From assembly GCF_020165195.1 (NCBI RefSeq), contig NZ_JAIUHR010000013.1, positions 62,001 through 126,000 of the forward strand: a stretch of DNA of 64,000 bases. Direction: 5' to 3'. The notes beneath the pieces are model-generated. The model searched no databases. It saw only the letters and a list, made by a program, of their open reading frames with translations, and was not told where the DNA came from. Below are positions 31,717-36,705 of the stretch, piece by piece. Position 1 is the stretch's first letter. Every line of letters begins with the position of its first letter. The translations under genes and the position numbers were made by a program. This DNA comes from Mesorhizobium sp. CA14 (GTDB lineage Bacteria > Pseudomonadota > Alphaproteobacteria > Rhizobiales > Rhizobiaceae).

Positions 31717-33102
31717 TCAACGTGTCAGCGCGTCGAGGATGCGCGCCCAGGACCGCTGACCCTTGTGGAACGAAGTCAGCTCGTATTTCTCGTTCGGCGA
31801 ATGGATGCGGTCGTCGTCGAGGCCGAAGCCGACCAGCAGCGATTCCATGCCGAGATAGGTCTGGAAATCACCGACCACGGGAATGGAGCCGCCGCCGCCG
31901 GTGGTGACCGCCTGCTTCTCCCATTCGTCGGACAGCGCATCCTTGGCTTTGGCCAGGAACGGCGAGTCGTAGGAAAGCTGGATCGCTGGCGAACCGCCAT
32001 GCGGGTGGAATTCGACCGAGCAGTCGCCGGGAATGCGTTCGCGCACGAAGGCCTGGAAGGCGGCGCGGATCTTCTTCGGATCCTGCTTGTGAACGAGCCG
32101 GAACGACACTTTTGCCGAGGCCTCCGCCGCGATCACCGTCTTGAAGCCCTTGCCCGTATATCCGCCGATAATGCCGTTGAATTCCGCGGTCGGCCGCGCC
32201 CAGGTGAGCTCAAGCACCGAGCGGCCCTTTTCGCCGGCCGGAATGGAGAGGCCGACCGGTCCGAGGAAGGTCTCGGCAGTCTCGCCAAGCCCTTCCCAGG
32301 ATTTCAGCACCTGCGAGGGCGTCTCCTCGACGCCGTCATAGAAGCCCGCAATGGTGACGCGGCCGTCCTTGTCGTGAACATCGGCCAGCACTTTGGCCAG
32401 GATCCGGATCGGATTGGCGGCCGGACCGCCATAGAGGCCCGAATGCAGGTCGCGGTTGGCCGCCTTGACGGTGACCTCCTCGCCGACCATGCCGCGCAGC
32501 GACACGCAGATCGACGGCGTCTCGCAGTTCCACATGCTGGTGTCGCAGACCAGCGCGAAATCCGCCTTCAGCTCGGCCGCGTTGGCTTCCAGGAATGGCT
32601 TCAGCGACGGCGAGCCGGATTCCTCCTCGCCTTCGAACAGGATGGTGATGCGGCAGGGCAGATTGCCATGCACCTGCTTCCACGCGCGGCAGGCCTCGAC
32701 GAAGGTCATCAGCTGCCCCTTGTCGTCGGCCGAGCCGCGCCCGGTGATCACCTTGCGGCCGGGCTCGATCTCCTTGATCGACGGCGCGAACGGATCGGTT
32801 TCCCACAATTCGATCGGATCGACCGGCTGGACGTCGTAGTGGCCGTAGAACAGCACATGCGGCACGCCCCCCGGTCCCTCGTGATGCGCCACCACCATCG
32901 GATGTCCGGGCGTGTCGCGCACACTCGCGTCGAAGCCGATCAGCTTGAGCTCGGCGACCAGCCATTCGGCGCCCTTGCGGCAGTCGGCGGCAAAGGCCGG
33001 ATCGGTGGAGATCGACTTGATGCCGAGCAGGCCGAACAGCCGCTCCAGGCTCTGGTCGAGATTCTGATCGAGACGCTCAAGGACGGGGGCGATTCTGGAC
33101 AT
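31717..33102 (-). CDS. M20 family dipeptidase
   Basis: A 461-residue zinc peptidase of the M20/M25/M40 clan. Metal and catalytic motifs: FYGHYDVQPVDP (His, Asp), GRGSADDKGQL (bridging Asp), FEGEEESGS (catalytic Glu and a metal ligand), CDTSMW (Asp) and HSPNEKYEL (His). A lid domain lies at about 200-320. The sequence is closest to the cytosolic non-specific dipeptidase/carnosinase branch. It starts about 90 bases downstream of the putative small RNA. Confidence 0.9.
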   Translation of the reverse strand: MSRIAPVLERLDQNLDQSLERLFGLLGIKSISTDPAFAADCRKGAEWLVAELKLIGFDASVRDTPGHPMVVAHHEGPGGVPHVLFYGHYDVQPVDPIELWETDPFAPSIKEIEPGRKVITGRGSADDKGQLMTFVEACRAWKQVHGNLPCRITILFEGEEESGSPSLKPFLEANAAELKADFALVCDTSMWNCETPSICVSLRGMVGEEVTVKAANRDLHSGLYGGPAANPIRILAKVLADVHDKDGRVTIAGFYDGVEETPSQVLKSWEGLGETAETFLGPVGLSIPAGEKGRSVLELTWARPTAEFNGIIGGYTGKGFKTVIAAEASAKVSFRLVHKQDPKKIRAAFQAFVRERIPGDCSVEFHPHGGSPAIQLSYDSPFLAKAKDALSDEWEKQAVTTGGGGSIPVVGDFQTYLGMESLLVGFGLDDDRIHSPNEKYELTSFHKGQRSWARILDALTR

Positions 33103-33192
33103 GCGGGAGCCTTTCGAGTTTTCGGCCGACCCTAAAGGGCCACGCCGAAAACGAAAAGCCGTGATTGTTGGACCAACGCCGGCATCGCTATC

Positions 33193-33348
33193 GCCAAATA
33201 AAAGAAGACCGCCGTGGTGGAGGGGGAACCACGGCGGTCTCTACTCGAAACGTTGCGGCAGCCCGGAGAGGGGGGATAGGCTGCCGCAGTTTGCCCGGGA
33301 TAGGCGGGGGACGGGCCTTACTCCGGACTTCGGCGAAAAACTGCCGAT
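33193..33348 (-). ncRNA. Putative small RNA with C-rich loops and intrinsic terminator
   Basis: On the minus strand two perfect stems follow each other: TGCGGCAGCC/GGCTGCCGCA around a TATCCCCCCTCTCCG loop (33288-33254), then GACCGCCGTGGT/ACCACGGCGGTC around TCCCCCTCC (33239-33207), then TTCTTTTATTTGG. The second stem and T-rich tail make an intrinsic terminator, with no ORF before it. CTTGAA (33384-33379) and CAAATA (33360-33355), 18 apart, may be the promoter. The loops are complementary to Shine-Dalgarno sequences, like the anti-SD loops of known rhizobial sRNAs. Ends are estimated. Confidence 0.6.
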
Positions 33349-33527
33349 GACGTGTATTTGGGTCTGTGAACATGGCGATTCAAGGGCACGAAAATTACAC
33401 TTTTGTAACATGCCCGTGAGCGGCAAATTTCCAGCCGGACAGGATGTGTCAGGGGTGTTGCCCGAACCGGTGGGTTCCACAGCCTTAGCCATGGACCGCG
33501 AAGCCGGGCCGCGCTATCCCTGCCGGC

Positions 33528-36488
33528 ATGAAAAAAGGCGATCACCTCTTCCTCGTCGACGGCTCCGGCTACATTTTCCGCGCCTACCACGCGCTGCCGC
33601 CGCTCAACCGCAAATCCGACGGCCTGCCGACTAGTGCCGTGCTCGGTTTCTGCAACATGGTGTGGAAGCTGATGCAGGACGCCCGCAACACCGATGTCGG
33701 CGTGGTGCCGACGCATTTCGCCGTCATCTTCGATTATTCGTCGAAAACCTTCCGCAGCGATCTCTACCCCGAATACAAGGCCAACCGCTCTGCGCCGCCG
33801 GAAGACCTGATCCCGCAATTCGGCCTGATCCGCCAGGCGACCGCAGCCTTCAATGTCCCTTGCATAGAGACGGAGGGCTTTGAAGCCGACGATATCATCG
33901 CGACTTACTGCCGCCTGGCTTGCGAAGCCGGCGCCGACACCACCATTATCTCTTCCGATAAGGATCTGATGCAGCTGGTCGGTCCGACCGTCGGCATGTA
34001 CGACCCGATGAAGGATCGCCAGATCGGCATTCCCGAGGTGATCGAGAAATGGGGCGTGCCGCCGGAAAAGATGATCGACCTGCAGGCGCTCACCGGCGAC
34101 TCGGTCGACAATGTTCCGGGCGTGCCGGGCATCGGCCCGAAGACCGCGGCGCAATTGCTCGAACAATTCGGCGACCTTGACGGGCTGCTCGCGCGCGCTT
34201 CCGAGATCAAGCAGGAGAAACGGCGCGAGACCATCATCGCCAATGCCGACAAGGCCCGCATCTCTCGCGAGTTGGTGACGTTGAAGAACGACGTGCCGTT
34301 GAGGGAAGGCCTGGACGACCTTGTCCTGCATGCGCCGGATGGCCCGAAGCTGATCGGCTTCCTGAAGACGATGGAGTTCACCACGCTGACGCGACGCGTC
34401 GCCGAAGCGACCGGAACGGACATTGGCGACGTCCAGGCCTCGGCCGTCACCGTCGAACGCGCCGATACCGCGCATGGTCCCGATGTCGGCGCCGGCGCAC
34501 CGGCGGTGCCAAGGCCGACCGCGCCGAACGACACCGCAAAGCCGGCTGCGCCGGTCAGGGGCGAGGATGCGCCGCCGCAAGGCGACACCCCATCGCTCCT
34601 CTCGGCGCTGCGGCTGGAACACGCGTCGGCGCGCAAGATCGACATTTCGGCCTATGCGCCCATCCGCGACACGGCCGCGCTCGAGGCCTGGATAGCCGAA
34701 GCCCGCGACGCCGGCATCCTTGCTTTCGACGCCGAGACCACCTCGTCCGACCCGATGCAGGCCGATCTCATCGGCCTGTCCATGGCGCTGGCGCCGGGCC
34801 GCGCCGTCTACGTGCCGCTCGCCCACAAGAGCGGCAATGGCGATCTGCTTGGCGGCGGCCTTGTGGAGAACCAGATCCCGGTCCGCAAGGCGCTGGCGCT
34901 GCTGAAGCCGCTGCTTGAGGATCGATCGGTCCTCAAGATCGTACAGGACATGAAATACGATATCGTCGTGATGAGCCGGCATGGCATCGAGGTCGCTCCG
35001 TTCGACGACACGATGCTGATCTCCTATGTGCTCGATGCAGGCACCTCCGGCGGTCACGACCTCGCTTCGCTGTCGGAAAAATGGCTGGGCCACGCGCCGG
35101 CTACGAAAAAGGAGCTTGCCGGCTCCGGCAAGAGTGCCATCGGCTTCGACCAGGTCGATATCGAGCGTGCGACCGCCTATGCCGGCGAGCAGGCCGACCT
35201 GGCGCTCCGGCTCTGGCAGGTGCTGAAGCCGAGGCTTGCCGCCAAGGGCCTCGTTTCCGTCTATGAGCGGCTGGAAAGGCCGCTGGTGCCCGTGCTCGCA
35301 CGCATGGAGCAGCGCGGCGTCTCCGTAGACCGCCAGATCCTGTCGCGGCTGTCAGGCGAATTGGCCCAGGGTGCTGCCCGCGTCGAGGAAGAGATTTACG
35401 GGATCGTCGGCGAGCGCATCAACATCGGCTCGCCGAAACAGCTCGGCGACATCTTGTTCGGCAAGATGGGCCTGCCGGGCGGCTCGAAGACCAAGACCGG
35501 CCAATGGTCGACCTCGGCGCAGCTCTTGGAAGACCTCGCCGCCGAAGGCCACGAGCTGCCGCGCAAGATCGTCGACTGGCGCCAGCTCACCAAGCTGAAA
35601 TCGACCTATACCGACGCGCTGCCCGGCTTCATCAACCCCGGCACCAACCGCGTGCACACCTCATATGCGCTGGCAGCGACCACCACCGGGCGGCTGTCCT
35701 CCTCCGATCCCAATCTGCAGAACATCCCGGTGCGCACGGCCGAAGGGCGCAAGATCAGGAGCGCCTTCATCGCCGAAAAAGGCCACAAGCTGGTCTCGGC
35801 CGACTACAGCCAGATCGAATTGCGCGTACTTGCCCATGTGGCCGAAATCCCGCAGCTCAAGCAGGCTTTCGCCGACGGCGCCGACATCCACGCCATCACC
35901 GCGTCGGAAATGTTCAACGTGCCGGTCGAGGGCATGCCTTCGGAGGTGCGCCGGCGCGCCAAGGCGATCAATTTCGGCATCATCTACGGCATCTCGGCCT
36001 TCGGTCTCGCCAACCAGCTGTCGATCCCGCGCGAGGAGGCGGGCGCCTATATCAAGCGCTATTTCGAGCGCTTCCCGGGCATCCGCGACTACATCGAGGA
36101 AACCAAGGCCTATGCGCGGGAGAACGGCTTCGTCGAGACCATCTTCGGCCGCCGCATCCATTATCCGGAGATACGATCCTCCAACCCGTCGATCCGCGCC
36201 TTCAACGAGCGCGCCTCGATCAACGCCAGGCTCCAGGGCACCGCCGCCGACATCATCCGCCGCGCCATGGTGCATATGGAAGAAGCGCTGGAGAAGGCGA
36301 AGCTCTCGGCCCGCATGCTGTTGCAGGTGCATGACGAGCTGATCTTCGAAACGGTGGAAGCGGAGGTCGAGACGACGATCCCCGTGGTGCGCAAGGTGAT
36401 GGAGAACGCGCCGATGCCGGCCGTCTCGATGTCGGTGCCGCTGCATGTCGACGCTCGCGCCGCCAACAACTGGGACGAGGCGCATTGA
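33528..36488 (+). CDS. polA: DNA polymerase I
   Basis: A 986-residue protein with all three parts: 5'-3' exonuclease (about 1-295, FLVDGSGYIFRAYHALPP at the start, then SSDKDLMQL and PGVPGIGPKTAAQLL), 3'-5' exonuclease (about 380-580, with FDAETTSSDP keeping the Asp/Glu pair) and polymerase (about 610-986). Polymerase motif A is ADYSQIELRVLAH, motif B is RRRAKAINFGIIYGIS and motif C is LQVHDELIFE. It fills gaps and removes primers. Length is typical of alphaproteobacterial PolA. Confidence 0.97.
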   Translation: MKKGDHLFLVDGSGYIFRAYHALPPLNRKSDGLPTSAVLGFCNMVWKLMQDARNTDVGVVPTHFAVIFDYSSKTFRSDLYPEYKANRSAPPEDLIPQFGLIRQATAAFNVPCIETEGFEADDIIATYCRLACEAGADTTIISSDKDLMQLVGPTVGMYDPMKDRQIGIPEVIEKWGVPPEKMIDLQALTGDSVDNVPGVPGIGPKTAAQLLEQFGDLDGLLARASEIKQEKRRETIIANADKARISRELVTLKNDVPLREGLDDLVLHAPDGPKLIGFLKTMEFTTLTRRVAEATGTDIGDVQASAVTVERADTAHGPDVGAGAPAVPRPTAPNDTAKPAAPVRGEDAPPQGDTPSLLSALRLEHASARKIDISAYAPIRDTAALEAWIAEARDAGILAFDAETTSSDPMQADLIGLSMALAPGRAVYVPLAHKSGNGDLLGGGLVENQIPVRKALALLKPLLEDRSVLKIVQDMKYDIVVMSRHGIEVAPFDDTMLISYVLDAGTSGGHDLASLSEKWLGHAPATKKELAGSGKSAIGFDQVDIERATAYAGEQADLALRLWQVLKPRLAAKGLVSVYERLERPLVPVLARMEQRGVSVDRQILSRLSGELAQGAARVEEEIYGIVGERINIGSPKQLGDILFGKMGLPGGSKTKTGQWSTSAQLLEDLAAEGHELPRKIVDWRQLTKLKSTYTDALPGFINPGTNRVHTSYALAATTTGRLSSSDPNLQNIPVRTAEGRKIRSAFIAEKGHKLVSADYSQIELRVLAHVAEIPQLKQAFADGADIHAITASEMFNVPVEGMPSEVRRRAKAINFGIIYGISAFGLANQLSIPREEAGAYIKRYFERFPGIRDYIEETKAYARENGFVETIFGRRIHYPEIRSSNPSIRAFNERASINARLQGTAADIIRRAMVHMEEALEKAKLSARMLLQVHDELIFETVEAEVETTIPVVRKVMENAPMPAVSMSVPLHVDARAANNWDEAH

Positions 36489-36517
36489 CGCCGACCGGCA
36501 GGCGTCGCGATCCTTCA

Positions 36518-36671
36518 CACCCCCTCTGGCCTGCCGGCCATCTCCCCCGCAAGGGGGGAGATCAGCCGTCACGTCGGGTTTCGCCAATCTTCAACGTCGC
36601 AGGATGAGCGGAGCGCGGAACCCGCCAATCTCCCCCCTTGCGGGGGAGATGCCCGGCAGGACAGAGGGGGG
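36518..36671. repeat. Paired inverted repeat element after polA
   Basis: Two 33-base arms (36530-36562 and 36628-36660) are inverted copies with one mismatch. Each arm contains its own hairpin (ATCTCCCCC...GGGGGGAGAT type). The outer flanks CCCCTCTGG and CAGAGGGGG extend the pairing imperfectly. This is a rhizobial CTCCCCC-type palindromic element, also related to those at 59124 and in phnJ. It may terminate polA. Confidence 0.85.
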
Positions 36672-36705
36672 TGCCTCGCGCCGGCATCAACCGGCTAGCT
36701 GGCCC

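What the first reader, a model, noticed from the sequence alone, without database searches (positions are those of the whole stretch)
33193..33384. Putative small RNA with anti-Shine-Dalgarno loops between the M20 dipeptidase and polA
The minus strand carries two perfect stem-loops whose loops are runs of C and U (TATCCCCCCTCTCCG and TCCCCCTCC), the second followed by a T-rich tail that makes a textbook intrinsic terminator. There is no ORF upstream for it to terminate. CTTGAA and CAAATA, 18 apart, sit where a promoter should be. Rhizobial sRNAs with C-rich loops that pair with ribosome sites are known (alpha-r14 class and the CUCCUCCC-loop class), and this may be a member or a new one. Both stems and the tail are seen; the promoter and identity are inferred.
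Basis: partly seen in the sequence, partly recalled or inferred. Interest (0 to 1): 0.8.

Follow-up and report, generated by a model that had tools for sequence, protein, structure and literature searches.

The report
Known rhizobial small RNA, ar7 family
This stretch of a Mesorhizobium genome encodes a small regulatory RNA of the already catalogued ar7 family, whose unpaired C-rich loops probably block ribosome-binding sites on messenger RNAs; what it regulates is still unknown.

Summary
The feature is real but belongs to a known family. Window 33203-33349 (minus strand) is a full-length match to Rfam RF02342, ar7 (116.5 bits, cut-off 60). It is the Mesorhizobium ortholog of Sinorhizobium meliloti SmrC7/Sra03/SmelC023, which lies in the same place beside polA and has mapped ends, a processing site and nodule induction.

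It missed two hairpins: a 5' one that Rfam's consensus structure also leaves unpaired, and one with the loop GUCCCCCG. All four hairpins covary (21 of 33 pairs with double changes in 45 sequences), while the loop cores of the second and third do not change. It is not ar14 (42.6 bits, cut-off 58.8).

The promoter resembles the heat-shock type RpoH1. Upstream lies a conserved palindrome, TTAC-N5-TGTAA (44 of 45 representatives), whose distance to the -35 box takes two values one helical turn apart. I did not see the 5' hairpin or the palindrome described in the passages I read.

Best mechanism: a stress- and symbiosis-regulated trans-acting sRNA that represses translation through C-rich loops. 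The anti-Shine-Dalgarno step is inferred; no target is established.

The parts
33200..33351 (-). ar7 sRNA transcript (inferred 5' G at 33351, 3' U run ending at 33200)
   Evidence: Rfam RF02342 33203-33349, 116.5 bits; own model R1 33200-33351, 143.7 bits (the window's sequence is in its training set). Ends inferred by homology to S. meliloti SmrC7, 148-150 nt.
33331..33346 (-). Hairpin H1, 5' hairpin CGGC...GCCG; unpaired in Rfam's consensus structure
   Evidence: 4 pairs, 100% of cells with letters paired, 2 pairs with double changes in 45 sequences; RNAalifold finds it unprompted; Rfam structure line
33293..33328 (-). Hairpin H2 with inner stem GGC/GCC
   Evidence: 9 pairs in two helices, 5 with double changes; outer helix 95.6% and inner helix 100% of cells paired
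33305..33312 (-). H2 loop core GUCCCCCG; SmrC7 is processed 42 nt after its main start, which maps in or beside this loop
   Evidence: All 8 columns invariant in 45 of 45 sequences; processing site from PMC2780559 passages; mapping to the window is inference
33254..33288 (-). Hairpin H3, loop UAUCCCCCCUCUCCG
   Evidence: 10 pairs, 7 with double changes, 99.1% of cells paired
33264..33273 (-). H3 loop core CCCCUCUCCG
   Evidence: Found in 79 of 80 loci chosen by PolA alone, upstream of polA; CCCCUCUCC predicted unpaired
33208..33238 (-). Hairpin H4, intrinsic terminator stem, loop UUCCCCCUCCA
   Evidence: 10 pairs, 7 with double changes, 99.8% of cells paired; its loop varies between lineages
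33200..33207 (-). U-rich tail of the terminator
   Evidence: Sequence CTTCTTTT
33379..33384 (-). -35 element CTTGAA, RpoH1-like
   Evidence: CTTGA in 125 of 125 unique promoters; sixth base A in 124 of 125 and 44 of 45 representatives
33356..33362 (-). -10 element CCCAAAT, 16 bases after the -35 box
   Evidence: Coordinates; RpoH1 consensus CTTGAA-N15-16-CCTATAT from PMC4843759
33394..33409 (-). Putative operator GTTACAAAAGTGTAAT, centred about 50 bp upstream of the inferred start
   Evidence: TTAC-N5-TGTAA in 124 of 125 unique and 44 of 45 representative promoters

Best explanation
The locus encodes the Mesorhizobium ortholog of the ar7 sRNA (S. meliloti SmrC7/SmelC023). It is transcribed alone from an RpoH1-like (possibly RpoD-shared) promoter and is probably controlled by a DNA-binding protein at the upstream palindrome. 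The transcript of about 150 nt folds into four hairpins and ends at the H4 terminator. By analogy with SmrC7 it is partly cut in or beside the H2 loop, leaving a roughly 106-nt RNA with a free 5' C-rich end plus H3 and H4. The exposed C-rich segments would pair with G-rich Shine-Dalgarno regions of several mRNAs and block translation, as reported for NfeR1 and AbcR1/2. Shown here: identity, covariation, synteny, and conservation of promoter and palindrome. Shown in S. meliloti by others: transcript ends, processing, nodule induction. Inferred: the sigma factor, operator function, the place of processing in this RNA, and translational repression.
For: Rfam full-length match; one copy in the own genome; over cut-off in 40 of 41 genomes of the genus and 170 of 247 of the family. 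ar7 lies upstream of polA in 79 of 80 loci chosen by PolA alone. Covariation at 21 of 33 pairs, 0 of 500 shuffles as high, slid controls at most 9; same hairpins found by RNAalifold. H2 and H3 loop cores conserved and C-rich loops predicted unpaired. Promoter and palindrome conserved. H3 and H4 loops pair better with gene starts than with gene interiors in the window (p 0.0002 and 0.00001, 51 genes). S. meliloti data. aSD repression by NfeR1 and AbcR1/2.
Against: No validated target in the passages seen. The aSD test is weak: starts were chosen partly by SD strength, a shuffled H3 loop also gave p 0.025 and an A-rich control p 0.013. The H2 loop, the most conserved together with H3, shows no preference for gene starts (p 0.16). 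The H4 loop is not conserved in sequence. SmrC7 was not detected in the Hfq co-precipitate, unlike AbcR1/2; a later Hfq study lists SmrC7 primers but I did not see its result. The one target lead does not hold in the three orthologs from other genera that could be parsed. The -10 box matches RpoH1 at 5 of 7 positions, and the published prediction lists RpoD as well as RpoH1/2. One of five covariation measures is not above shuffles (101 of 500).
Confidence: 0.72

Rival explanations
1. It is an ar7 sRNA, but the C-rich loops act differently: they stabilise or activate mRNAs by pairing away from the ribosome site, as reported for PmaR, or they bind a protein.
For: PmaR has a C-rich loop, mostly activates, and most of its predicted contacts lie away from ribosome sites. 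The H2 loop has no preference for gene starts. SmrC7 was not detected with Hfq.
Against: H3 and H4 loops prefer gene starts (a biased test). The better studied multi-loop sRNAs of S. meliloti, NfeR1 and AbcR1/2, repress through aSD motifs.
Confidence: 0.22
2. It is a leader or attenuator of the downstream M20 peptidase gene rather than a separate sRNA.
For: Same strand; the peptidase start codon is about 100 bases after the U tail.
Against: The distance from the H3 loop to the M20 match varies from 145 to 2273 bases, and no M20 match lies within the fetched flank in 13 of the 135 ar7-bearing loci (some flanks are short). The S. meliloti ortholog is a discrete RNA of 148-150 nt with its own terminator.
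Confidence: 0.04
3. It is only a transcription terminator or a chance pair of palindromes.
For: H4 with its U run is a standard terminator.
Against: No gene is seen reading into it; Rfam match, covariation and conserved promoter.
Confidence: 0.01

Closest known systems
ar7 family, Rfam RF02342; S. meliloti SmrC7 = Sra03 = SmelC023 (SMc06056)
   Same: Full-length covariance match, same neighbour polA and orientation, similar length (152 nt predicted, 148-150 nt mapped)
   Different: Different genus. A 5' hairpin H1, supported by covariation, is not in Rfam's consensus structure.
ar14 family, Rfam RF02344; NfeR1
   Same: Three hairpins with exposed C/U-rich loops, the last one being the terminator
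   Different: ar14 has the same CCTCCTCCC-type loop three times (read in 4 copies of this genome); this RNA has three different C-rich loops and scores below the ar14 cut-off.
AbcR1/AbcR2 (ar15 family)
   Same: C/U-rich aSD motifs; AbcR2 transcription depends on RpoH1
   Different: Other motifs (CUCCUCCC, UUCCCCUC); no Rfam match to that family here
PmaR of Agrobacterium
   Same: Exposed C-rich loop that contacts targets
   Different: One large loop; mostly activates; most predicted contacts not at ribosome sites
6C RNA (RF01066) and Scr3202 (RF02833)
   Same: Similar layout of C-run loops; weak sub-threshold scores
   Different: Below cut-off (32 of 47 and 26.9 of 52 bits); from other phyla (recalled), likely convergent

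Membership tests
ar7 (RF02342) | Score above the curated gathering score over the full model | tested here: met
   116.5 bits against 60, model 1-145
ar7 (RF02342) | Synteny of the S. meliloti type member: between polA and SMc02851 | tested here: met
   Window has divergent polA and codirectional M20. polA divergent in 50 of 56 and M20 codirectional in 49 of 56 loci found by Rfam; ar7 in 79 of 80 loci found by PolA. That SMc02851 is the M20 ortholog is inferred from position only.
ar7 (RF02342) | Independent transcript of about 150 nt ending at a Rho-independent terminator | tested here: inconclusive
   Sequence predicts 152 nt. SmrC7 is 148-150 nt. No expression data for this genome.
ar7 (RF02342) | Processing to a roughly 106-nt form | not testable with these tools
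   Known for SmrC7
ar14 (RF02344) | Score above gathering score | tested here: not met
   42.6 bits against 58.8
ar14 (RF02344) | Same aSD motif unpaired in all loops | tested here: not met
   Three different C-rich loops: GUCCCCCG, CCCCUCUCCG, CCCCUCC
CcsR / CCUCCUCCC-motif class (RF02791) | CCUCCUCCC motif and gathering score | tested here: not met
   18.5 bits against 65.3; motif absent from the transcript as printed
AbcR (ar15) | Rfam match | tested here: not met
   Not among the 8 matches to 4227 families at E up to 1 in 33150-33450

The most novel reading that the evidence does not exclude
In Mesorhizobium a dispersed repeat acts as a sponge or target set for ar7. In this genome the repeat ends in CGGAGAGGGGG, an exact 11-nt complement of the H3 loop, after two apparent hairpins. 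Transcripts carrying it could titrate the sRNA or be regulated by it as a group.
Probability: 0.05. Interest if true: 0.6.

Novelty: already known. Interest (0 to 1): 0.25.

Why it matters
ar7 is widespread in the family of this genome (Rhizobiaceae in the GTDB sense, inferred), stays beside polA, and its S. meliloti member rises about 13-fold in nodules, yet I found no reported target or function in the searches made. The added anatomy makes its regulation testable: a fourth hairpin, two invariant loop cores, an RpoH1-like promoter, and a palindrome whose distance to the promoter changes by one DNA turn.

Tried and rejected
Palindrome identity. The exact pattern GTTAC-N5-TGTAAY occurs at 3 places in this genome. 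By eye on the ORF lists, and without family searches, one other lies in phage-like genes (L138) and one beside a TetR-type gene (L139), so they look unrelated. A symmetric pattern adds one more place, also beside that TetR-type gene. ChvI was considered; the published motifs (N-GCC-N8-GCC in S. meliloti, TTGC-N3-GCAA in Caulobacter) do not fit. The LsrB consensus GCAT-N3-TG-N3-T does not fit the window's palindrome either. A LysR-type T-N11-A spacing is present but not specific. The regulator stays unidentified.

Targets. The complement of nine bases of the H3 loop followed by ATG gave 3 hits in the own genome. One precedes a 122-aa probably exported protein with no Pfam match at E up to 0.001; the other two open frames of 33 codons. 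The same gene with the same site is in G004, and an ortholog with 9 of its 10 complementary bases is in G012. Orthologs were found in 12 of 81 genomes. My script parsed a start for 5 of the 13 loci fetched there, including the own genome and G012; the other three lack the complement, one of them with an uncertain start. Kept only as a lead.

Peptide. 94 of 125 transcripts hold no closed reading frame from ATG, GTG or TTG, and lengths vary from 142 to 159 nt. Rejected.

Wider distribution. With model R1, 21 of 347 genomes of the order matched; 15 are in the own family (above 100 bits). The 6 others score 26.5-33.7 bits, in the range of the four ar14 genes of this genome under the same model (16.0-33.8), and the 5 fetched have no polA or M20 match in the locus. 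The searches over many genomes use strict filters and score few candidates per genome, so distant relatives may be missed.

One locus without ar7: L077 (Mesorhizobium sp. 65-26, a MAG), not explained.

Full report
What it is. The window is from Mesorhizobium: its PolA is 98% identical to that of Mesorhizobium sp. CA8 and B4-1-3. An Rfam scan of the whole window at gathering cut-offs gave a single match: RF02342, ar7, at 33203-33349 on the minus strand, 116.5 bits against a cut-off of 60, the whole model. The finding is therefore a member of a catalogued sRNA family. Weaker scores for ar14 (42.6 of 58.8 bits), 6C RNA, Scr3202, BjrC80, CcsR1 and two others are all below cut-off; several of these families share a layout of C-rich loops.

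Prior knowledge, from passages and tables found by term search (no paper was read whole). In S. meliloti the ortholog SmrC7 lies between polA and SMc02851. Its 5' ends map to 201681 (five of six clones) and 201679, a processing site to 201723; sizes are 148-150 and 106 nt; expression rises about 13-fold in nodules (PMC2780559). Northern bands at about 140 and 90 nt are in a flattened table of PMC2573895, as I read its rows. It was detected as SmelC023 by deep sequencing (PMC2873474), was not detected in an Hfq co-precipitate, for which the authors allow low affinity (PMC2848018), and is listed with predicted RpoD and RpoH1/2 motifs and nodule expression (PMC7143759). PMC5928592 lists SmrC7 primers in an Hfq study; its result was not seen. 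PMC5596092 says Smr7C was not discovered in M. huakuii 7653R, but the ar7 sequence is present beside polA in M. huakuii NBRC 15243 (L063). I found no target or function for SmrC7 in the searches made; a conservation study that mentions SmelC023 eleven times (PMC3927594) was seen only as a search listing.

Distribution. One copy in the own genome. Genus: 40 of 41 genomes over cut-off; the miss is an 86% complete genome. Family: 206 of 247 genomes at E up to 0.001, 170 of 247 over cut-off, 93 of 109 genera. Order: 12 of 297, all in the own family. With my own model, 21 of 347, of which the 15 in the own family are strong and the 6 others weak.

Synteny. Of 80 loci chosen only by PolA similarity, 79 have ar7 upstream of polA in divergent orientation; the miss is L077. 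Of 56 loci chosen by Rfam, polA is found divergent in 50 and the M20 gene codirectional in 49 within the fetched flank of up to 1.5 kb, and each has at least one of them. The two sets share genomes. In Aminobacter loci L087 and L088 ar7 is about 2.7 kb from polA, yet it keeps its -35 box and palindrome, so these belong to the sRNA, not to polA.

Structure. From 136 loci, 135 gave a sequence (L077 dropped), 125 after removing identical ones, 45 representatives below 93% identity. Extraction was anchored on CCCCTCTCC, so the invariance of that word in the alignment is partly by construction; the less biased statement is its presence in 79 of 80 PolA-chosen loci. On the MAFFT alignment the four-hairpin structure pairs 98.9% of cells; 21 of 33 pairs show double changes (shuffled mean 12.7, 0 of 500 as high; slid controls 3 to 9); covariation score 0.348 against 0.166. 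One measure, further pair types, is not above shuffles (101 of 500). The structure was drawn from the window's own sequence, which favours it on cells paired. RNAalifold predicts the same hairpins unprompted, with one more pair in H3. Rfam's consensus leaves the first 20 or so positions unpaired; H1 there pairs in every sequence with letters on both sides and has double changes in two of its four pairs. GUCCCCCG (H2) and CCCCUCUCCGGG (H3) are invariant in the 45 sequences; the H4 loop varies. In the window the three C-rich loops are predicted unpaired.

Processing. SmrC7 is cut 42 nt after its main start. The same distance in the window falls in or beside the H2 loop GUCCCCCG. A fold of the shorter form, started at nucleotide 41 by my choice, opens H2 and leaves UCCCCC mostly unpaired at the 5' end (probabilities 0.65 to 0.99). 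This mapping is inference, since the S. meliloti sequence itself was not in hand.

Promoter and palindrome. CTTGA is present in all 125 unique promoters and the sixth base is A in 124; in the 45 representatives it is A in 44. Published consensuses are CTTGAA-N15-16-CCTATAT for RpoH1 (PMC4843759) and CTTGAC-N17-CTATAT for RpoD (PMC8844928). The window reads CTTGAA-N16-CCCAAAT: the -35 box fits RpoH1 fully, the -10 box at 5 of 7 positions. My -10 pattern was too strict for 40 of 125 promoters, so I give no count for that box. The palindrome TTAC-N5-TGTAA is in 124 of 125 promoters (the other has a single mismatch); the gap to the -35 box is 10-12 bp in 112 and 20-22 bp in 13. Among representatives it is in 44 of 45, with 34 short and 10 long gaps. 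These sequences are related, so the counts are not independent. Two spacings one turn apart suggest a protein that must sit on the same face of DNA as RNA polymerase; this is inference. The exact pattern has only 3 places in the genome, the other 2 apparently unrelated.

Mechanism. NfeR1 (ar14) and AbcR1/2 silence mRNAs through C/U-rich aSD motifs. In 51 probable genes of the window, the H3 and H4 loops pair more strongly with start regions than with gene interiors (-8.14 against -6.08 kcal/mol, p 0.0002; -7.22 against -4.97, p 0.00001); an AbcR-like motif behaves the same way (p 0.000004). The H2 loop does not (p 0.16); a shuffled H3 loop also reaches p 0.025, and an A-rich control p 0.013. 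Starts were partly chosen by SD strength, so the test is biased toward a positive result. I therefore hold translational repression as the best but unproven reading.

Target lead and repeat. A 122-aa probably exported protein has CGGAGAGGGG before its start codon in this genome and in G004, and GGAGAGGGG in G012; the three orthologs from other genera that my script could parse lack it. Separately, CGGAGAGGGGG occurs 22 times in this genome against 0 for the backwards control. One place is ar7 itself (opposite strand); the 20 others that I read belong, by eye, to one dispersed repeat with two apparent hairpins; one was not fetched. G006 and G013 have only the ar7 copy, so the loop does not depend on the repeat. 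I think the match is most likely a coincidence between GC-rich sequences.

Verdict. A real member of a known sRNA family with some extra anatomy; low novelty, moderate use as a starting point for work on its regulation and targets.

Noticed in passing
G000 contigs C3, C7, C9, C15, C17, C18, C23, C25, C26, C27, C30, C65 (L229-L242): Dispersed repeat, read by eye: a TTCCTCGCCCCCGC hairpin, AGAGGTG, a second hairpin (GCTCGGC/GCCGAG or TCCGC/GCGGA types), then CGGAGAGGGGG, an exact complement of the ar7 H3 loop; some copies sit as inverted pairs 26 to 150 bp apart. 22 matches of the 11-mer in this genome, 34 and 28 in two relatives.
   Followed up: partly
L147:1138-1503 (minus), contig C52 of the own genome: 122-aa probably exported protein without Pfam match, with CGGAGAGGGG before its start codon; possible ar7 target within Mesorhizobium.
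   Followed up: partly
L077 (Mesorhizobium sp. 65-26 MAG): The only one of 80 polA loci without ar7 upstream; no match to the Rfam family or to model R1 in the 8949 bases held.
   Followed up: partly
G000:C1:3693-3987, C18:63359-63476, C45:59019-59133 (L141-L144): Four ar14 sRNA genes in the same genome, two of them in tandem, each with three CCTCCTCCC-type loops.
   Followed up: partly
window 31717-33102 (minus): M20 peptidase next to the sRNA; best NCBIfam match is PRK09104 (subfamily, 'hypothetical protein'), 815.7 bits against a cut-off of 327.
   Followed up: no
G000:C18:61787-61827 (L139, L140): Two GTTAC-N6-GTAAC palindromes 25 bp apart just before a gene that looks TetR-type by eye, perhaps its own operators.
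   Followed up: no
window 36485-36690: Two overlapping mechanical ORFs on opposite strands share the peptide PAGHLPRKGGD, which looks like translated intergenic repeat sequence rather than protein.
   Followed up: no
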